Assembly (NCBI RefSeq): GCF_001590835.1
Contig: NZ_LTAQ01000002.1
Location: 45,812-109,811 of the forward strand
DNA: 64,000 bases
From: Bacillus gaemokensis
Lineage (GTDB): Bacteria; Bacillota; Bacilli; Bacillales; Bacillaceae_G
Reading direction: 5' to 3'
Under the pieces are notes generated by a model that did no database searches, was not told the DNA's origin, and saw only the letters and a list, made by a program, of their open reading frames with translations. Shown here piece by piece: positions 2,885 through 53,857 of this stretch (position 1 is the first letter of the stretch; each line of letters starts with the position of its first letter). The position numbers were made by a program, and so were the translations under genes.

Positions 2885-3120
2885 TTAGAAAATAAAAAAA
2901 GCCCGTGTCCCCAAAATAGGGACCGAGCTTTTGCCGGCGTTACCACCCTGATTCATATACAAATAAATTGTACATGCTCTCTTTTTGATAACGGGAACTT
3001 CCCGCTGCATATGCAGAACGCAAAGGTAGGTTCCATATCGTCTTTTTAAGAATCTCTCAGCCAAATGGATTCTCTCTCTGCAAAAAGGTGAGACATGTAC
3101 TAATCCTTTTTCATCGTTAT
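2885..3120 (-). promoter_or_regulatory. T-box riboswitch (proline, CCU specifier) with terminator
   Basis: Reading the minus strand, the leader has the GGATTAGTACATG start of stem I, the GGCTGAGAG segment, a specifier loop GAA-CCU-ACC (specifier codon complementary to 3030-3028) and the T-box antiterminator sequence AGGGTGGTAACGCC (2951-2938). A GC-rich terminator hairpin (2930-2894) ends in a T run, about 25 bases before the proS start. Uncharged tRNA-Pro should pair with the CCU and the T-box bulge and allow read-through into proS. Specifier and target agree, which supports the call strongly. Confidence 0.95.
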
Positions 3121-3227
3121 GACGAAATAAATTTGTTGAATATCATAATATAAATCCCATTTTAAAACAATAGCTAATTTTCTTATTTTTATATATTCTT
3201 TTCATTTTTTTCTGTTTTATACTGGAT

Positions 3228-18116: not shown

Positions 18117-18159
18117 GCATGCAAGTTATTATACAATAACGTTTGCTTACAAACTTTAA

Positions 18160-18245
18160 GTAATTCCCTACGCTGGCATTATCCAGATCAGGTTGAGGGT
18201 CGATGCAATTTACATCCTCTCAGCCAAATGGCTCCCCGGTCTTAA
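18160..18245 (-). promoter_or_regulatory. TPP riboswitch (THI element)
   Basis: The minus strand has GGGGAGCCATTTGGCTGAGAGG, ACCCTCAACCTGATCTGGAT and AATGCCAGCGTAGGGAA in order, the conserved TPP aptamer blocks. Ligand binding should favour the terminator at 18116-18076 and shut off ykoF-like-thiXYZ when thiamine pyrophosphate is plentiful. Confidence 0.97.
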
Positions 18246-18631
18246 TTCGCTTTCATTGTAGCATGATTTATTTTTCCGAACAAACATATAAGGAGTTTCT
18301 TTTTTAAACACGGATACAGATTAATGAAATAAAGTACTTAGTTTTCCCTGCCTGTTCATACATCTCCCTTATAAAAAATTACGTTTATTAAGTATAAATT
18401 TTTCATACAAAATCGTTATATGTTTTTTCTAACTCATACCTCTATACGTAGTACATTCTATTTATAAGTTTTGTAAAATAATTTTACCAAATATAGTGAA
18501 TGTTACTTTTTATGTGTTATATAATAAAAAAGGTTTATATAAAAGGCTTTTATTTGTTTAATTTAATAATTATTATATAAATTAAATTATTCAAAAATAT
18601 CTTACCACATGGATTTTGGAGGTATTTTATC
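18246..18631. other. AT-rich promoter region of dcu
   Basis: No ORF seen. It contains the diverging promoters of the thi operon and dcu, and an AT-only inverted repeat (TTTAATTTA at 18557 with TAAATTAAA at 18578). GGAGG lies 9 bases before the dcu ATG. No clear Fnr box. Confidence 0.4.
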
Positions 18632-22970: not shown

Positions 22971-22987
22971 TGAACATGTGCTTTTAC

Positions 22988-23082
22988 ACTCTCCCTACGC
23001 TGGCATTATCCAACAGGTTCAAATGGTCAACGACAGATTAGCCGTACTCTCAGTTTGCATCCGCAAACTCCCATGTGTTTTC
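22988..23082 (-). promoter_or_regulatory. TPP riboswitch (THI element)
   Basis: The minus strand has CATGGGAGTTTGCGGATG, ACTGAGAGTACGG, TTGAACCTGTTGGATAATGC and CAGCGTAGGGA, the TPP aptamer order with a long variable P3 arm. It controls thiM-thiE by termination. Confidence 0.96.
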
Positions 23083-23164
23083 TTATTCATCTACTTCAGA
23101 GTCTACTCTTATTCTAGTAAAATAACAAGTTACAAGTTTTTGTCTTCTTAATATATAAGTACAA

Positions 23165-45492: not shown

Positions 45493-46317
45493 TTATTTGC
45501 CCTGCTTCCTCTTCTTTCTTCTTTTCATATAAATGAAGAGTACAAGCCCGCCTACAATAACGCCTGAGGCCACTATCATCTTTTTGTCTATCATAGATGG
45601 CTTTGACTTTGAAACTGCTTCTTTTTCTTTTGAATTATAAGGAACGCGGTGTCCTCTAATTAATAGCCGATGTGTATTGACCCCATAAGGCGTACACGTA
45701 ATTAATGTGGCATAATCTTTCTCTTTCACAACTGCTAAATCAGCGGTTTCATTCGGTAACGCAACTTTAATTTGATCCACTTGATAAGCAAGCACTTTAT
45801 CCAATGAATGAATATAAAAAATATCAGATTCCACTAATTTATCCAAATCAGTAAACAATACTGCAGAAGGTAATCCGCGGTGTCCAGTCAAAATTGTATG
45901 GGTACTTTCTCCTCCGACCGGTAAAGATGACTTCTCTATATGACCGACTCCTCGACTTAACACCTCTTCAGAAGTTCCATGGTAAATAGGAAGTTTTACA
46001 TCAATTTTAGGTATTTCAACATACCCCATTACTTCTCCTAAATTTAAAACATCTATATACGATTTCGAATCGCTATTTTTCCCCTCATTAAATGGATCTG
46101 AAAATGATTGATTCTCATTTTGAATCTTTTTGTTATATTCTTCGGCTTCTCTTTCTCTTCGTTCAATTTCTTCCTTTTGAAGTGCTTTTACTTTTTCATC
46201 ATACGTACTAACTTCCGAATAATGCGCTCTCGTTGCTAGCCAATTGCTGACAGTTGGGTATAGAAAAATACTAAGGCCTAATAAAAAAACACATCCAAAA
46301 ATGATATTACGCTTCAT
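45493..46317 (-). CDS. srtD: Class C (pilin-polymerising) sortase
   Basis: The 274-residue membrane transpeptidase has an N-terminal span, a DPF lid motif (74-76), catalytic His146 (LTGHRG), Cys208 (TLITCTPYG) and Arg217 (THRLLIRG), and a C-terminal span with a basic tail. Lid and TCTPYG are class C traits. It joins BcpA subunits through the YPKN lysine and adds BcpB at the tip. AAAGGGG precedes the ATG. It lies 92 bases after bcpA behind a hairpin. Confidence 0.95.
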   Translation of the reverse strand: MKRNIIFGCVFLLGLSIFLYPTVSNWLATRAHYSEVSTYDEKVKALQKEEIERREREAEEYNKKIQNENQSFSDPFNEGKNSDSKSYIDVLNLGEVMGYVEIPKIDVKLPIYHGTSEEVLSRGVGHIEKSSLPVGGESTHTILTGHRGLPSAVLFTDLDKLVESDIFYIHSLDKVLAYQVDQIKVALPNETADLAVVKEKDYATLITCTPYGVNTHRLLIRGHRVPYNSKEKEAVSKSKPSMIDKKMIVASGVIVGGLVLFIYMKRRKKRKQGK

Positions 46318-46409: not shown

Positions 46410-48053
46410 TTAATTTTTTAAAGGTTTTCTTCTGAAGAAAACAAATGCTGCTGCAGCCATTAATACAAGACCTACTACCGTAAATAGGACTGTTCCCATA
46501 CCACCTGTCGAAGGAAGTACCCAACCGCTTTTGTTATTCTCTACAGTTAATTTAATTGTTTGATTCTCTTTGTCAATCGTTACATTGATTGGCTCTTTTA
46601 ATTTTTGGTAAGACTCTTTTTTACCATCTTTTTCATAAGTTGGTGCCTTTGTTTCGACAATTTGGTACTCACCGTATGGAAGGTTATTCCATTTGATAAC
46701 ACCATGCTCATCAGATACACCTTTTACTTCTTTTCCTTCTACTACTACCACATTACCTTTTTGGTCACGTAGTTCAAATTCTGCACCTTGTAATGTCTTT
46801 TTATCATCACCATCAACTTTTGTTAGTGCAATACTACCAGTTGTTGGGACAACAATTACTGGCTTAGATTCCTTTTCACCACTTACATCATTTTTGTTTG
46901 TAAAATCAATTGTTGCTGTATTTGGAATTTCTGTTCCAGCTGCTACGCCTTCTTTAATTTGTGATTTGATTTTTAAATGAAGCTCTTTTTTACCATCTAA
47001 TTTTGAGAAATCTTTTACAGTAGCTGTTACTTTTTGTCCTTCTACAACTACTTCTACCACACTTGAATCCACTTCTACACCATCAATTTTCACAACTGGC
47101 TTCCCTTGAATCACTAATCGATTATCTAGATTATCTGTTACAACGTAATTCTTATAATCTTTAATATCCTCTGGGATTAACGTTTTAATATCATAATTGT
47201 AATCTTTTAACGGATTAATTGGTAAAAGTTCTAGATCATTATTAATCTTTTTGTCAATCGTTGGTTCTTCATAGTTTTTCACTGATACTGGTACTACTAC
47301 ACCAGACTTAATTGTACCCGACTCTGTAATTGAAAACTCATGTTTTGTTGGATCTAAAACATATCCATCTAGCGCTTTTGTTTCTTTAAAGTAGTATTTA
47401 CCATATGATAAGTTTTCTACACGAATTGCACCATCATCACCAGTTTTTAAACCTTCTCCATTTTCAACTACTTTTCCGTCTTCATGATATAAAGTAAATT
47501 CTACACCTTTTAATACTTTATCTTTCGCACCTGTTTTGATTAATTCTACTGCACCACGTTTTGTTTCATTCTTTGGGTACATATGAACATCATAGTTTAA
47601 AGCTTTACCCTCTTTATCTGTCATTGGAATATCAACTGTATACGTGTTTGGATTTAAGTTAACATGAGCTGGACCAGCAATTTCTTTTACTTCATAACGT
47701 CCTAAAGGAAGATCTTTAAATGCAGCTTGTCCATCTTTACCTGTTATTTTTGTCATCGATTTTGCATCTGTAACATCTTTTACAGCTTCTTTTACAATCT
47801 CGCCATCTTTTGTAATCTTTTCAAAAGATTTGATTTGTTTAATTTCAAACGTTACACCTTCTAACGCTTTTGCATCTCCTGGAATTGTTTGACCTGCTTC
47901 CCCAGTTCCTTCACCTGTTGCTGCGCCTTTTTCTTGTTCGTACTTATGAATTGTTAAAGACCCTTTCTCTGGAGCTGCTGCATTCACAAACATGCTTGGC
48001 AACGTTGAAAACATTAATACAAAAATTAAAAGCATACTAAAAATCTTTTTCAT
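46410..48053 (-). CDS. bcpA: Major pilin, BcpA-like
   Basis: The 547-residue wall-anchored pilin. Signal peptide about 1-26 (cleavage after VNAA), the pilin motif YPKN with the acceptor Lys161, Cna-B type domains with E-box segments (YYFKETKALDGY; PYGEYQIVETKAP) that usually hold Lys-Asn isopeptide bonds, sorting signal LPSTG (513-517), hydrophobic span and RRKPLKN tail. The ATG at 48053 follows GAGGAAG. It forms the pilus shaft polymerised by SrtD and is anchored by the housekeeping sortase. Confidence 0.95.
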   Translation of the reverse strand: MKKIFSMLLIFVLMFSTLPSMFVNAAAPEKGSLTIHKYEQEKGAATGEGTGEAGQTIPGDAKALEGVTFEIKQIKSFEKITKDGEIVKEAVKDVTDAKSMTKITGKDGQAAFKDLPLGRYEVKEIAGPAHVNLNPNTYTVDIPMTDKEGKALNYDVHMYPKNETKRGAVELIKTGAKDKVLKGVEFTLYHEDGKVVENGEGLKTGDDGAIRVENLSYGKYYFKETKALDGYVLDPTKHEFSITESGTIKSGVVVPVSVKNYEEPTIDKKINNDLELLPINPLKDYNYDIKTLIPEDIKDYKNYVVTDNLDNRLVIQGKPVVKIDGVEVDSSVVEVVVEGQKVTATVKDFSKLDGKKELHLKIKSQIKEGVAAGTEIPNTATIDFTNKNDVSGEKESKPVIVVPTTGSIALTKVDGDDKKTLQGAEFELRDQKGNVVVVEGKEVKGVSDEHGVIKWNNLPYGEYQIVETKAPTYEKDGKKESYQKLKEPINVTIDKENQTIKLTVENNKSGWVLPSTGGMGTVLFTVVGLVLMAAAAFVFFRRKPLKN

Positions 48054-48092: not shown

Positions 48093-51000
48093 TTAGTTAC
48101 TGCTTCTTTTACGGAAAAATAAAAGTAACGTGATTACCATAAGTATAGTACCGATAAGATAGAAAATAGCGGTCCCTATTCCGCCAGTGTTTGGAATCAC
48201 CCATTCACTCTTCGTATTTTCTACCGTTATTTTTTGTACTGGTGATCCGACTTCTACTTCAATTGGATCTCTCAAAAGCATATAGCCATCCGGTGCCTGT
48301 ACTTCTTTAATCGTATATTTTCCGAACAATAATTGATCAGAAATCGCCTTACCTTTTTCATCTGTTGTTAATTTTCCAACTTCTTTACCGTCTTTGTCTA
48401 AAATCTGAAACACAGCATTTTTCAATTTCAGATTGGAATCTGTAGCATCCACTTTTGTAATTTCAATTATTCCTGTGTCTAGCAATTCATTTTTTACTAC
48501 CAATGACAGTACTTCCTTCATACCCTTTATGATTTCAAAGGATACTGGTTCCTTTAATTCTTTATACCCTGGTAAACCTTTTACTTCTACCAATTTATAT
48601 TTACCTATGGATAAATCAGAAATCGTTGCTTTTCCGTTTTCATCTGTTGTTACTGCCCTTACAGTCTTACCTTCTTCATCTTGGACCTCAAACATTACCC
48701 CTGCTAATGCTTTATTACTGCCTTTGTCCACTTTTGTAATTTCAACAGATCCTTTATCCAGCAATTCATTTTCAAAAGTTATCTCTACAGGAGTTTTTGT
48801 GTCTTTCATTATTTCAAAAGCGTATGATTTATCACTTAGTTTATAACCTTTCGGAGCTTTGACCTCGACTAGTTTATATTCACTGATTGGTAAATCAGTT
48901 GCTCTAGCTTTTCCGTCTTTACCCGTTGTGATTGTTTGAATTACTTGACCATCTTTACTTTGAACTTCGAAAACAGCACCTTCTAATGGAGTGTTGCTAC
49001 CTTTTTCCACTTTTGTAACTTCCAACTCTCCAAAATCGACTGTATCTTCAACTAGCCCGGCATCGATCGTCATATTGTGTTCATCTTCACCAAGCTTGAT
49101 AGTTTCTGAATATCCATCTTTATCAACATTAGAATCAAGTTTTTCATCATTGCCAGCGTTTTTCTTTGTCCACTTGTACCCATCCGGCAACGTAAATCTC
49201 ACTTGGTATTCACCTGGATCTAAATTTACAAATTTGTAGTAACCTGGATTTCCTTTTTTGTCATTACCAGTTCTCGTCATACTAATGACTTTTCCATCTT
49301 TGTCTAGTAATTCTACGACTACACCGTTCACACCAGTGTTTCCATCATTTTGAATTCCGTCTTTGTTTTTATCCAACCAGATGTAATCTCCTAATGAACT
49401 CTTTTTCGAAGCTTTTAGCTGTACACCTACTCGGTTTGGCTCTGCTGGTTGAATCCAATTTCCTGTTACATCATTTATTGCACTATATCCAAATGAATTC
49501 CATGCAATTCCAGCTGAAGCATCCATATCAACAGGTGCACGCATTGTCCATTCTAACGTCGCTGCTTCTCCAGGATATACAAGTTTATCCTTAGCAAATT
49601 CAAACTTAACTGCCGTTACCTTTGTTAAATCTGCTGGTGGCTCTAAAGACCAATTCGGATCATTTGCGCCCTCTGGATTTACAAAAACGTCGTTTCCTTG
49701 TATCAAATCATCACGCTTCGGTTTTGAAACAGTCGTATAATAAATCTTAATAAAGTCACCGTCTGTAAGTTGAATTGGTGACGTTAAATATGGAGTCCAT
49801 TTACTACCACGCTCTTGTACATGATTCTTTGTTTGTAAAACTGACTGGTCACCCTCTGCAGGGAATATATCAATTAAGACACCATTCCTTACCGCTACGG
49901 TTCCACCATTTTCAATTTGCAAACGATATTTCACTTCTCCACCTGGTACTGTCGTTGCTACTTCTGGCGAACCTTTCCAACTATCGTCTAATTCACCTTT
50001 TACATATTTAATTGATTTTAAAGATTGCTCTTCTTCAATATCAATAGCATCTTTGCTTTCAATAATTGGGTCTTTTGTATCTCCATCACCATCGAGGTCA
50101 TTTTCGTCTTTTCCTGTTGGTTGTCCCCATCCATCTTCTGCAGATTTAATTGTTGATACATTAGACATTAAGCCTGCTCCATTGTAAAGCTTGCCTGCCA
50201 TGGCAAAATTATTAACCTTTACTTTGAACTTAACAGTTACAGCATCTCTCGCTGGAACATCTAATTCAGGGAATGTCCATCGTAAAAGCGTTCTTCCTTT
50301 TTCTTTATAATTCGGGATTGCTTCAACTTTTACTTTTTTTGCATCATAAGGTTTTCTATCCCACTCTTCTTTAACAATAGTAAACTTCTCTGAGCCTGGA
50401 ACATATTCCAATCCCTTTGGCAACCAATCTACAATTATTGGCTGTTTTAAAGGAGTAGAACGCCCATCCACTTTACCAGTTAATTCAAATTCAACTTCTT
50501 CTCCCTTGGTATACTTTTCTCCGGGCTTCGTTAATGCTTTTTTCTTAAAAGTAACCCTTGGTTCGGGATTTTCTTTTACTTTTACTTGCGCTGTTGCATC
50601 TTTTATATAGTTCTTTCCATCAATATCATATGAAATATGTGCTGTATTTTTCAAAGTTCCTTCTTTAAAGTTCGGATCGTCCACTTTAAAATACAACCAA
50701 GCCCCTGATCTCATCTCAAAATTCGCAGGCACTTTACCAAATTCATATCGAATTCCAGTTACTTTGTCTCCTTCAGCTAATGGTAAAGAAGAAACATCTA
50801 ACCATTCTCCGTTAGTATTGCCTCCAATAACTTTCCATTCTTTCCACTCTGAATTATTCTTCGTTTTATATAAAAGCTTATATTCACTTACACCTATAAA
50901 TGCACCAGTATGCATTCTCGTAAAACGTAGTCTTTCATCAAAGCGATCGTCTTGAAGAACAAAATTATCTATTTCCTTAGAATATTGATTTTTGATGTTA

Positions 51001-52004
51001 TACAGTGTAAATTCAATTTCTTCATCTTTACTGTACTCAGACTTTGCAGCAGCCTTATTTAAATCTGAAAAAGCTTGCTCAGGGGGAATAACAGGAGGCT
51101 TTTTATTTGAGACTTCAACATACGCATGTGTTTGTTTTGTTAATTCCCTTTCCCCTTTTGGCTTCAGCTTTGCCTCAACCATATTCAGAACTTGTTGATT
51201 TTGATCTTCGCCAAAATTCTCTTCCGGGAACTTCACCTTAACTTTAACGAATTTTTCACCTTCTACATTTTGCAGATCCCATACGACTGTATGTGAATTC
51301 GCATCATACTTCCCATTATCACTCGCTGAAATAAACTGAGCTTCTTTTGGCAAAATATCTTTTATAGAAAGCGAATCGAGTGTAGTTGGACCACTAACGT
51401 GTTTAGCACGAATAGTATATTCAACTTCTTCTCCTGGTTTAATCGTCCATTTGTCAGGAGTTTTACGCATTTCCCACTCTGGTTTCTTAGGTGGCTCCGG
51501 TGGAACTTCTTTTTCATGTGCTATAACAGTTACTTTATTAGAGGTTTTTCCTCCTTGATCCGATACAAAATCGGCTACAGCTGTAGCTTTCGTTCCGTCT
51601 TTTGTTCCCTTTGGAAACTTAACTGTAATAGGAACTGCTTTAGAATCTCCGTTTGGAAGAAAATCTTTAAAGGTATAAATAACGGAATGCGTTTCTTTAT
51701 CGTATACTGCATCCGTACCACCAATCTTCCCATGTCTTACATATTCGACTTCAGGTGGTAGTTTAACAATAATTTTTGCATCTTTATGCCCACCTTCTAA
51801 TCCAAATGTACTTAAATCAAGTTGATATACAAAGTCTTTATCTACATCTTTTTGCGAACCATCTCCACCTTCAACCGAAAGCTTTAAGCTGGCATTCGCT
51901 TCTTTGTCATATGTTGCTGCTTCCACCATATGTATAAATGGCTGTGCAATAATTTGCATTACCATCAAACAAATGACAAATATACTAATCTGTTTACTTT
52001 TCAT
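48093..52004 (-). CDS. bcpB: Pilus tip adhesin, BcpB/collagen-adhesion-like
   Basis: The 1303-residue surface protein. Signal peptide about 1-30; DUF11/adhesin-like domains over about 40-870; an SdrD_B-like domain about 875-990 (GDYIWLDKNKDGIQNDGNTG); three Cna-B/SpaA repeats about 990-1265 (GELEVTKVEKGS..., GSVEITKVDKGS..., GIIEITKVDATD...); sorting signal IPNTG (about 1270-1274), span and RKRSSN tail. IPNTG in place of LPXTG is the known BcpB signal. The ATG at 52004 follows GAGAGGTG. First gene of the operon, 23 bases or so from bcpA, under the c-di-GMP riboswitch. Confidence 0.93.
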   Translation of the reverse strand: MKSKQISIFVICLMVMQIIAQPFIHMVEAATYDKEANASLKLSVEGGDGSQKDVDKDFVYQLDLSTFGLEGGHKDAKIIVKLPPEVEYVRHGKIGGTDAVYDKETHSVIYTFKDFLPNGDSKAVPITVKFPKGTKDGTKATAVADFVSDQGGKTSNKVTVIAHEKEVPPEPPKKPEWEMRKTPDKWTIKPGEEVEYTIRAKHVSGPTTLDSLSIKDILPKEAQFISASDNGKYDANSHTVVWDLQNVEGEKFVKVKVKFPEENFGEDQNQQVLNMVEAKLKPKGERELTKQTHAYVEVSNKKPPVIPPEQAFSDLNKAAAKSEYSKDEEIEFTLYNIKNQYSKEIDNFVLQDDRFDERLRFTRMHTGAFIGVSEYKLLYKTKNNSEWKEWKVIGGNTNGEWLDVSSLPLAEGDKVTGIRYEFGKVPANFEMRSGAWLYFKVDDPNFKEGTLKNTAHISYDIDGKNYIKDATAQVKVKENPEPRVTFKKKALTKPGEKYTKGEEVEFELTGKVDGRSTPLKQPIIVDWLPKGLEYVPGSEKFTIVKEEWDRKPYDAKKVKVEAIPNYKEKGRTLLRWTFPELDVPARDAVTVKFKVKVNNFAMAGKLYNGAGLMSNVSTIKSAEDGWGQPTGKDENDLDGDGDTKDPIIESKDAIDIEEEQSLKSIKYVKGELDDSWKGSPEVATTVPGGEVKYRLQIENGGTVAVRNGVLIDIFPAEGDQSVLQTKNHVQERGSKWTPYLTSPIQLTDGDFIKIYYTTVSKPKRDDLIQGNDVFVNPEGANDPNWSLEPPADLTKVTAVKFEFAKDKLVYPGEAATLEWTMRAPVDMDASAGIAWNSFGYSAINDVTGNWIQPAEPNRVGVQLKASKKSSLGDYIWLDKNKDGIQNDGNTGVNGVVVELLDKDGKVISMTRTGNDKKGNPGYYKFVNLDPGEYQVRFTLPDGYKWTKKNAGNDEKLDSNVDKDGYSETIKLGEDEHNMTIDAGLVEDTVDFGELEVTKVEKGSNTPLEGAVFEVQSKDGQVIQTITTGKDGKARATDLPISEYKLVEVKAPKGYKLSDKSYAFEIMKDTKTPVEITFENELLDKGSVEITKVDKGSNKALAGVMFEVQDEEGKTVRAVTTDENGKATISDLSIGKYKLVEVKGLPGYKELKEPVSFEIIKGMKEVLSLVVKNELLDTGIIEITKVDATDSNLKLKNAVFQILDKDGKEVGKLTTDEKGKAISDQLLFGKYTIKEVQAPDGYMLLRDPIEVEVGSPVQKITVENTKSEWVIPNTGGIGTAIFYLIGTILMVITLLLFFRKRSSN

Positions 52005-52140
52005 ACTCACACCTCTCTATTACTCCCTCTAAAATAAGTATCTACACTACTTTTCTGGATATCACCCCCTTTCAGTTAGAGAGCGGTGGAGTATGAAAAT
52101 TCTATATGTCAAACGACTTGTTAATTTTTAGATAATTCAG

Positions 52141-52193
52141 TAAAACAAAAAGGATTGTCAGGTTACAAATAAAATTTGCAACCTGACAATCCT
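52141..52193 (-). terminator. Intrinsic terminator of the c-di-GMP riboswitch in the pilus leader
   Basis: AGGATTGTCAGGTT pairs with AACCTGACAATCCT, extended by CAAAT/ATTTG to about 20 bp with one mismatch. The T run (TTTTTGTTTT) is on the minus strand. It lies 137 bases before bcpB with no gene upstream that it could end, so it must act on the pilus transcript. Confidence 0.85.
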
Positions 52194-52275
52194 AGTAATA
52201 AGATTTATTACCTTAGACTCAAAGCTTTGCGACCTATTCTTTCAAATAGTGTGCCAATAAATTTATAAATTACAA
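52165..52275 (-). promoter_or_regulatory. c-di-GMP-I (GEMM-I) riboswitch aptamer
   Basis: The minus strand reads GGCACACTATTTGAAAGAAT then AGGTCGCAAAGC, a short loop, GTCTAAGG, an AT stem, and ACTAGGATTGTCAGGTTGC. These match the class I c-di-GMP aptamer order: GCAC, a GNRA-like GAAA loop, the CGCAAAGC core, the CTAAGG tetraloop receptor and the GGTAGC-AGGTTGC-like P3 strand. Its 3' end overlaps the 5' arm of the terminator at 52193-52151, giving competing folds. It precedes bcpB-bcpA-srtD. Confidence 0.9.
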
Positions 52276-52555
52276 TATGACTATTGTATAAAAAAATTTA
52301 AAATTAATCTACTACATACACATTGTTTTTTATTTTATATACTATTTTTAACTATTGTTTCAATTCATATTTCACTCATGCAATACACCTCAATTAACAT
52401 ATAGTAAAACTTCCATTAGCTCTCACAATTCGGACTTTTAGAAGCAAGTATCCCCCTTACTTCCTTTTATACATAACCTGCAATTTAAATACTCTCAAAC
52501 AAGCTATCTCATATACTATATAGAAAATTGTTCTATATAAGAAAGGAGCCTTATC

Positions 52556-53857
52556 TTGAATCAAACAAAACTAACTGGGCGCATCATAATTCCAACAGAC
52601 TCTGAATATGATGTAGCTCGAATAAACTTGAGTTTAAGTATTCCAAAACTTCCTTGTATAATTGTCTTTTGTCAATGTATGTAATGCCTTGAAGTGGGCA
52701 CGTGAACGTCACGTACCATTTCGTGTAAGAAGCGGTCGCCATAGTTATGAAAATTTTTCTCTTCTAAACAATGGACTTATTATTGATGTAAGTGAAATGA
52801 ATCAAATTACGTTTCACAAAAACTGTTTAACAGCAACAATTGAAGCCGGTGCAAATCTTGGTACTGTTTATAAAGAACTTTTGAAATATGGTGTCACACT
52901 ACCAGCTGGCACAAGTGCAAGTGTTGGAGTTGTGGGATTGGTATGTTATCACGTTTATTTGGATTAACGTGTGATCAATTATTAGAAATAGAAATGGTAC
53001 AGGCATCTGGGAAGACAGGAGCCACGTTCATCCGTGCTAGTGAATTAGAAAATCCTGATTTATTTTGGGCATGCTGCGGCGGTGGGGGTGGAAACTTTGG
53101 AATTGTTACCTCATTAACATTTCGTGTTCATCTTATTAAAAATGTCTCGATTTTCTCACTCACTTGGGAATGGAAAGACTTTATTACTGCCTTTGAAGCT
53201 TGGTAAACATGGGCACCTTATACAGATGAGAGGCTCACCTCATCTATTGAATTATTTTCTAAAGAGAGAAATGAAATTGAGGTACAGGGCGAATTTATTG
53301 GTCCTCCTTCTGAACTCTTTGATTTATTAACTCCTCTACTTCATGCAGGATCCCCTACTTTTTTCATCGAGGAAGTTCCTTATATAAAGGCTGTTCAATT
53401 CTTTAATAGTGGTAACATCCCCGAAAAATTCAAACGTTCTGGTTCCTATGTATATAAACCAATTCCGGTGAAAGGAATTCAAATCTTAAAATATTTTCTT
53501 AGTCATGCTCCAAACCCTTCAGCTAGCGTTTGGCATCAATCACTTGTAGGAGCTGTAGAAGACATCGCTCCCAATGAAACAGCTTATTTCCACCGAAAAG
53601 CAATTATTGCTCAAGAATATATTACATTTTGGAAATGTGATGGTGAGGAGGAAGAAAATATACGATGGATTAAGAATTTACGCAATACTATGTCACCATA
53701 TACATTAGGAGACTATGTTAATTGGCCAGATATCGATATTAAGAACTGGCAAACTACCTATTATGGAACAAATTTCCCAAGATTACGTAAAGTAAAAACA
53801 CTGTACGATCCTTGTAATGTTTTTCAGTTTCCACAAAGTATTCCACCCTATTATTAA
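52556..53857 (+). pseudogene. Decayed FAD-linked oxidoreductase with BBE domain
   Basis: The remains of a berberine-bridge-type oxidase of about 445 residues: TKLTGRIIIPTDSEYDVAR and IPKLPCIIVFC at the N-terminus, FAD segment VRSGRHSYENFS, and C-terminal BBE motif YYGTNFPRLRKVKTLYDPCNVF. At least three lesions: a frameshift near 52672; a deletion at 52938-52941 that removes the conserved Gly-rich LTLGGG segment and restores the first frame; and a TAA at 53204 (after EAW) that replaces a sense codon. The frame then continues intact to 53857. The TTG start has GAAAGGAG upstream. Confidence 0.9.

What the first reader, a model, noticed from the sequence alone, without database searches (positions are those of the whole stretch)
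52141..52275. c-di-GMP-I riboswitch with intrinsic terminator in the leader of the pilus operon bcpB-bcpA-srtD
Seen: the ordered aptamer blocks (GGCAC, a GAAAG loop, CGCAAAGC, CTAAGG, AGGTTGC) and a terminator of about 20 bp whose 5' arm uses the aptamer's 3' end. Known: GEMM-I aptamers bind c-di-GMP, and such riboswitches have been reported before collagen-adhesion genes in B. thuringiensis (from memory). Inferred: the aptamer P1 strand (AT-rich 5' segment near 52265-52258 with the CAAATTTTAT segment) competes with the terminator, so ligand would favour read-through (an ON switch), making pili and adhesin rise with c-di-GMP.
Basis: partly seen in the sequence, partly recalled or inferred. Interest (0 to 1): 0.8.

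Follow-up and report, generated by a model that had tools for sequence, protein, structure and literature searches.

The report
c-di-GMP riboswitch before pilus operon
A known kind of RNA sensor for a bacterial signal molecule sits in front of genes for hair-like surface fibres and probably switches them on, and the same RNA seems to carry a second, unreported lock over the start of the first gene.

Summary
Confirmed: window 52265-52174 (-) is a c-di-GMP-I aptamer (RF01051, 69.2 bits, cut-off 35), overlapped by a 20-bp intrinsic terminator, 52193-52151. The genes behind it have the marks of B. cereus bcpB-bcpA-srtD. The terminator takes 10 of the aptamer's 22 consensus pairs, so aptamer and terminator exclude each other and ligand should favour read-through: an ON switch, as shown for Bc2/cap in B. 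thuringiensis (PMC4933901). This part is a new member of a known kind; three searches found no report at this operon. It encloses the strongest anti-SD match compared, without a usual start codon, like the STAB-SD stabiliser of cry3A. Both exceed all 41 control leaders. Folding gives no coupling of this lock to the riboswitch. Its conservation and function are untested: I found no B. cereus-group genome in the collections.

The parts
52334..52363 (-). candidate promoter TTGAAA-18-TATAAA
   Evidence: sequence printed; picked by eye and not listed by the scan, whose rule asks for T at the end of the second hexamer; weak
52174..52265 (-). c-di-GMP-I aptamer (RF01051)
   Evidence: 69.2 bits, E 1.7e-11, full model; 22 of 22 consensus pairs standard
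52255..52255 (-). G at the place of Vc2 G20 (ligand contact)
   Evidence: position 11 of the aptamer, as Bc1 G11 in PMC11218506
52228..52228 (-). A at the place of Vc2 A47 (ligand contact)
   Evidence: position 38, as Bc1 A38 in PMC11218506
52178..52178 (-). C at the probable place of Vc2 C92 (ligand contact); lies in the terminator 5' arm
   Evidence: placed by me through the Rfam alignment and Bc1 C81; inferred
52141..52193 (-). intrinsic terminator: arms 52193-52174 and 52170-52151, then T-rich tail
52077..52099 (-). arm A, complementary to the bcpB Shine-Dalgarno and start codon
52061..52073 (-). element B, GAAAGGGGGTGAT, 13 nt complementary to the 16S rRNA 3' end with one G-U; STAB-SD-like
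   Evidence: once in the window, 0 in 200 shuffles; anti-SD duplex -22.0 kcal/mol; 16S letters recalled
51998..52019 (-). arm C: Shine-Dalgarno 52018-52010, ATG 52004-52002 and first codons of bcpB
48093..52004 (-). bcpB, 1303 aa, IPNTG sorting signal, no YPKN
46410..48053 (-). bcpA, 547 aa, YPKN pilin motif, LPSTG sorting signal
45493..46317 (-). srtD, 274 aa, pilus sortase of class C

Best explanation
The leader of a bcpB-bcpA-srtD pilus operon carries a c-di-GMP-I riboswitch that works as a transcriptional ON switch. As the polymerase leaves the aptamer, the RNA can fold it (shown: model match, 22 of 22 pairs). If c-di-GMP then holds outer P3, the strand that the terminator needs is tied up and transcription runs on into the operon (inferred). 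Without ligand the same strand moves into the 20-bp terminator, which is far more stable once the RNA has grown past about 52163, and transcription stops (energies computed, termination inferred). The read-through mRNA then meets a second control: arm A pairs with the Shine-Dalgarno and start codon of bcpB, with a STAB-SD-like element between them (pairing computed, function inferred). The confidence given is for the ON riboswitch; I put the second lock acting in cells at about 0.35.
For: RF01051 match with all 22 pairs standard and 10 of 22 in conflict with the terminator. Holding the aptamer costs 0.4-0.9 kcal/mol for 3' ends 52184 to 52163; the terminator leads by 7.0 at 52160 and 22.5 at 52151. 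G and A at the places of G20 and A47. Same geometry as Bc2, shown to be ON in vitro and with reporters in cells (PMC4933901). Operon marks: YPKN, IPNTG, LPSTG, class C sortase, match to PDB 3kpt. Second lock: duplex -26.9 kcal/mol, 0 of 2000 shuffles; z -6.2 against -2.6 for the strongest of 41 control leaders.
Against: No ligand or termination data here. Conservation could not be tested. Bc1, also c-di-GMP-I and of this group, did not respond to c-di-GMP in vitro or in vivo in its native leader (PMC11218506). Two other genomes with full-length but distant BcpA show no Rfam match near the operon. One model position of the tetraloop-receptor strand departs from the consensus. The second lock looks closed in both riboswitch states, so it is not explained by the riboswitch; as a whole-segment fold it is less striking (z -2.8, 4 of 500 shuffles).
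Confidence: 0.85

Rival explanations
1. The aptamer binds c-di-GMP but hardly controls the operon in cells: termination dominates, as reported for Bc1, and the pili are switched by other means.
For: Bc1 binds c-di-GMP by SHAPE-MaP, yet its genes did not respond (PMC11218506). The terminator here is 22.5 kcal/mol ahead when complete.
Against: Bc1 was masked by a second terminator, T2; the scan of 51990-52700 finds one terminator only. Bc2, with the geometry seen here, responds (PMC4933901).
Confidence: 0.12
2. The switch is OFF, or answers another dinucleotide such as cGAMP.
For: c-di-GMP-I switches of both signs are known; in PMC6366702 (passages) class I acts as an off switch in C. difficile. 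G20A variants that bind cGAMP are recalled, not looked up.
Against: Aptamer and terminator share a strand, so one excludes the other. The base at the G20 place is G.
Confidence: 0.05
3. The A:C helix and element B are bystanders, or a DNA-level operator; bcpB is translated freely once transcribed.
For: One sequence only, no covariation test possible. A ribosome can load while arm A still pairs with B and the Shine-Dalgarno is open (MFE folds of RNAs ending at 52020 and 52014). With one mismatch allowed, the 11-nt core of B is no rarer than chance (2 found, 1.9 expected).
Against: 0 of 2000 shuffles match A:C. The exact 13-nt element occurs once in the window and 0 times in 200 shuffles. Both exceed 41 of 41 control leaders. 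A:C covers just the Shine-Dalgarno and ATG.
Confidence: 0.5
4. Element B starts an unusual leader peptide: an ATC-started frame from 52060 ends in TGA at 52009-52007, just before the ATG, and its translation opens the lock.
For: The frame is open to that stop and B is a very strong ribosome-binding match.
Against: It needs a rare ATC start; no ATG, GTG or TTG lies at normal spacing after B (sequence).
Confidence: 0.06
5. An internal promoter after the riboswitch drives bcpB, so the riboswitch is bypassed.
For: A perfect TTGACA at 52112; one promoter-like site CTGACA-18-AATTAT at 52161-52132 (-).
Against: No -10-like hexamer 16-18 nt after 52112 (sequence). One search finds 3 promoter-like sites in the region against 4.1 by chance.
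Confidence: 0.06

Closest known systems
Bc2 RNA upstream of cap/cbpA, B. thuringiensis BMB171 and 407 (PMC4933901, PMC7423583)
   Same: c-di-GMP-I; terminator arm starts about 75 nt into the aptamer (here 73rd nt); ON switch; controls a sortase-anchored surface adhesin
   Different: Other gene (one large MSCRAMM, no pilus operon named in what I read); A at position 11 where this has G; about 31 nt from terminator to ORF (my arithmetic from its TSS numbers) against 146 nt here, the stretch that holds the second lock
Bc1 RNA upstream of mcpE (PMC11218506)
   Same: c-di-GMP-I with a long expression platform and control proposed at both transcription and translation; G at position 11
   Different: Two terminators; RBS reported exposed without ligand and trapped with ligand, whereas here the RBS helix is predicted in both states; no STAB-SD is mentioned (0 occurrences); chemotaxis gene
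Bc3-5 triple-tandem riboswitch of cspABCDE (PMC4759541)
   Same: c-di-GMP-I in front of an operon of cell-surface proteins in this group
   Different: Three aptamers in tandem; different operon
STAB-SD of cry3A (PMC4113751)
   Same: SD-like match to the 16S 3' end in a 5' UTR that does not start translation
   Different: cry3A has no riboswitch in what I read; here the element lies in the loop of a helix over the start codon; stabilising effect untested
c-di-GMP-II switches of pilA1 and of sortase-substrate adhesins in C. difficile (PMC6366702)
   Same: c-di-GMP raises pili or sortase-anchored adhesins through ON riboswitches
   Different: Class II aptamers; the pili are type IV, not sortase-assembled

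Membership tests
c-di-GMP-I riboswitch (RF01051) | covariance-model score over the gathering cut-off | tested here: met
   69.2 against 35 bits, full model
c-di-GMP-I riboswitch (RF01051) | consensus helices of P2 and P3 | tested here: met
   22 of 22 consensus pairs standard
c-di-GMP-I riboswitch (RF01051) | ligand-contact bases G20, A47, C92 (Vc2 numbers) | tested here: met
   G52255, A52228 and C52178; the place of C92 is my inference
c-di-GMP-I riboswitch (RF01051) | GNRA tetraloop with its receptor | tested here: inconclusive
   GAAA loop present; receptor strand has G where the consensus has u (alignment)
c-di-GMP-I riboswitch (RF01051) | binds c-di-GMP | not testable with these tools
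   needs in-line probing or SHAPE
ON-type terminator/anti-terminator platform (Bc2 type) | terminator 5' arm made of aptamer 3' strand | tested here: met
   arm starts 20 nt before the aptamer end; 10 of 22 aptamer pairs conflict
ON-type terminator/anti-terminator platform (Bc2 type) | read-through rises with c-di-GMP | not testable with these tools
   needs in vitro transcription
B. cereus BcpA/BcpB/SrtD pilus operon | YPKN in the major pilin only; IPNTG in the minor pilin | tested here: met
   YPKN at BcpA residue 159 and absent from BcpB; IPNTG in BcpB; criteria from PMC3297441. BcpA ends LPSTG where that review gives LPVTG
B. cereus BcpA/BcpB/SrtD pilus operon | pilus-specific sortase in the cluster | tested here: met
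   class C sortase, 288 against 160 bits
class D sortase | NCBIfam class D models over cut-off | tested here: not met
   79.5 against 165 and 88.4 against 140 bits
STAB-SD | strong complement to the 16S 3' end in a 5' UTR, not starting translation | tested here: met
   13 nt, -22.0 kcal/mol, no usual start codon at normal spacing; that it starts no translation is read from sequence only
STAB-SD | stabilises the mRNA against 5'-3' decay | not testable with these tools
   needs 5'-end mapping and half-life measurements

The most novel reading that the evidence does not exclude
A double-locked leader in which c-di-GMP opens the first lock and mRNA processing opens the second. Read-through mRNA is born with the bcpB start closed by A:C. 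After a cut upstream, a 5'-3' exonuclease (RNase J) trims the RNA until it meets a 30S subunit on element B. That removes arm A, frees the start and leaves a stabilised mRNA. The order A, then B, then C is what this needs; cry3A STAB-SD (PMC4113751) and the processing of C. perfringens colA mRNA (recalled, not looked up) are precedents for its two halves.
Probability: 0.13. Interest if true: 0.75.

Novelty: new variant of a known kind. Interest (0 to 1): 0.5.

Why it matters
If true, sortase-assembled pili of this group come under direct c-di-GMP control, linking the signal for sessile life to a second kind of adhesive surface structure besides Cap/CbpA. The second lock, if real, would make this leader a case in which a transcriptional riboswitch is followed by a separate translational gate with a ribosome-binding element inside it; this can be tested with the unchanged RNA in vitro.

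Tried and rejected
Rejected: P1 as the main competitor (6 pairs, -0.9 kcal/mol). Class D sortase. Coupling of the second lock to the aptamer: constrained folding gives the same pairing of SD and ATG with the aptamer enforced or free. Internal promoter at TTGACA 52112: no fitting -10 box. Other Rfam families in the leader: the other matches with E up to 5 are all below their gathering scores.

Led nowhere: BcpB in genome contigs (none), its first 533 aa in plasmids (none); the leader in plasmids (one 48-nt match; two weak matches, other genera); BcpA and the exact terminator in viral contigs (none). ArcA as bait kept the best 80 of at least 590 relatives, at most 87% identical, none titled as a B. 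cereus-group species. BcpA matched 50 of 299 genomes, full-length only in G180 and G199 (41-42%) and over its second half in G172; five regions around BcpA matches gave no Rfam match. SrtD in plasmids found only sortases under 60% identity.

Limits of the controls: the terminator finder is a simple script. One search skipped three loci as short and misplaced one (L152); redid all 48 with the rule, and its figures replace those. Ten of these 48 are also among the 50 aptamers. ORF picks are crude (41 of 48 loci). In one search two of the 14 control starts (proS, bcpA) were set 3-4 nt off; with corrected starts their z are -1.9 and -0.4, so the lowest of the 14 is -2.4. The ten proteins were picked by me from 41 as likely surface or switch-like cases.

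Against or neutral: whole-segment fold of the second lock z -2.8, 4 of 500 shuffles; with one mismatch allowed the core of element B is as common as chance.

Full report
1. Observation. All 22 consensus pairs are standard. The terminator, arms 52193-52174 and 52170-52151, has 20 pairs, a 3-nt loop and a T-rich tail; it is the only terminator-like site in 51990-52700, where shuffles give 0.1 on average. The 145-nt segment folds at z -5.2, 0 of 200 shuffles as stable.

2. Surroundings. The riboswitch lies before three genes in one direction: a 1303-aa protein with SdrD_B, DUF11 and SpaA domains and an IPNTG sorting signal, a 547-aa pilin with YPKN and LPSTG, and a 274-aa sortase. These fit B. 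cereus BcpB, BcpA and SrtD as reviewed in PMC3297441 (passages), except that the review gives LPVTG for BcpA. BcpA aligns over residues 165-513 with PDB 3kpt; PMC8619143 (passages) names 3KPT as B. cereus BcpA. The sortase passes the class C model and misses the class D models. I take the window to be from the B. cereus group on this basis and on recalled gene content; no genome is held for it, and I did not identify the species.

3. How the switch should work. Ten of the 22 aptamer pairs, all of outer P3, use bases of the terminator. So does C52178, the probable equivalent of the ligand contact C92 of Vc2; G52255 and A52228 stand for G20 and A47 (numbering through Bc1 in PMC11218506; the place of C92 is my inference). 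Holding the aptamer fold costs 0.4-0.9 kcal/mol for 3' ends from 52184 to 52163; at 52160 the terminator leads by 7.0 and at 52151 by 22.5 kcal/mol. That leaves roughly 20 nt of transcription in which ligand can decide, and it is an ON design. A possible promoter, TTGAAA-18-TATAAA at 52363-52334, was picked by eye and is not among the hits; it would start the RNA about 62 nt before the aptamer. In Bc2 that distance is 76 nt (PMC4933901).

4. Comparison. Bc2/cap has the same geometry and was shown to be ON in vitro and with reporters in cells (PMC4933901; part 1 of 6 and passages read). It has A at position 11, where this switch has G. In nine other genomes 2 of 50 RF01051 aptamers have a best terminator that overlaps the aptamer, both in one genome; 2 are adjacent, 27 lie further downstream and 19 show none by my simple finder. 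In a second set of 48 high-scoring loci, ten of them shared with the first, 1 overlaps, 5 are adjacent, 32 downstream and 10 show none. The overlaps there begin 10-12 nt before the aptamer end; here it is 20 nt. So the deep overlap is uncommon in this sample, but Bc2 has it. Of ten downstream genes that I picked for Pfam out of 41, one has collagen-binding and SpaA domains (L201) and one MucBP, VWA and GBS104-like tip-pilin domains (L205): adhesins under such aptamers recur. The two genomes with full-length but distant BcpA (41-42%) show no Rfam match near it, so this control of such pili is not general.

5. The second lock. Between the terminator stem and the bcpB ATG (52004-52002) lie 146 nt; in Bc2 it is about 31 nt by its published positions. 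Arm A (52099-52077) pairs with arm C (52019-51998), which holds the Shine-Dalgarno and the ATG. The duplex of the start region with the 110 nt upstream is -26.9 kcal/mol; 0 of 2000 dinucleotide shuffles of these 110 nt do as well, the best reaching -24.3. Its z is -6.2, and the strongest of 41 control leaders has -2.6. Among 14 other genes of the window the lowest is -2.4 once two misplaced starts are corrected. As a plain fold of 52105-52000 the signal is milder: z -2.8, 4 of 500 shuffles. In the loop lies element B, 52073-52061, GAAAGGGGGTGAT, complementary over 13 nt with one G-U to the 16S 3' end (letters recalled). At -22.0 kcal/mol it exceeds the bcpB RBS itself (-12.9), 14 other RBSs (-6.1 to -13.6) and the best distal site in 41 control leaders (-16.4). 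It occurs once in the window and 0 times in 200 shuffles; with one mismatch its 11-nt core is as common as chance. No usual start codon follows at normal spacing. This fits the description of STAB-SD in cry3A (PMC4113751, passages). Minimum-energy folds of growing RNA show arm A paired with B, and the SD open, for RNAs ending at 52020 and 52014, then A with C from 52006 on; the fold at 52040 differs. The whole leader has a closed ATG with the aptamer enforced or free, so the model gives no reason to think that c-di-GMP opens it.

6. Shown and not shown. Computed: family membership, overlap, energies, operon marks, and that A:C and element B lie outside my controls. Inferred: ligand response, ON direction, promoter, action of the lock. 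Not testable here: conservation, since I found no B. cereus-group genome in the collections searched. Literature: searches for c-di-GMP riboswitch with pilus, sortase and B. cereus (2 papers), bcpA with c-di-GMP and Bacillus (1 unrelated paper), and c-di-GMP riboswitch with pilin and LPXTG (7 papers; listing seen, passages of PMC7423583 and PMC6366702 read) showed no report of a c-di-GMP riboswitch at this operon. Papers outside that library and supplementary files were not searched. Of PMC11218506 I saw part 1 of 9 and passages, of PMC4759541 and PMC5816809 passages.

7. Verdict. The riboswitch alone is a new member of a known kind, with Bc2-like geometry at a different operon. The leader as a whole, with a helix over the start codon and a STAB-SD-like element after the terminator, is a variant that I did not find described (searched STAB-SD with c-di-GMP riboswitch: 2 papers listed, both by title on 3' UTRs, not read). 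That part rests on one sequence, which is why interest is set at 0.5 and the boldest reading at 0.13.

Noticed in passing
window 46380-46348 (-): A perfect 13-bp hairpin between bcpA and srtD with only a short T run after it; it could lower sortase expression relative to pilin or be a processing site.
   Followed up: partly
window 52662-53857 (+): Pieces of an FAD-binding/berberine-bridge-type oxidoreductase spread over separate reading frames just upstream of the leader; it looks like a broken gene.
   Followed up: no
window 2915-3123 (-): T-box leader (103.6 bits) directly before a prolyl-tRNA-synthetase-like gene.
   Followed up: no
window 18148-18248 (-) and 22975-23084 (-): Two TPP riboswitches, one before an ABC-transporter-like gene set and one before genes that look like thiM-thiE (gene names by eye).
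   Followed up: no
   Followed up: partly
window 45388-45348 (-), approximate: A GGTGAT...ATCACC hairpin with a T run after srtD, the likely end of the operon (sequence printed).
   Followed up: no
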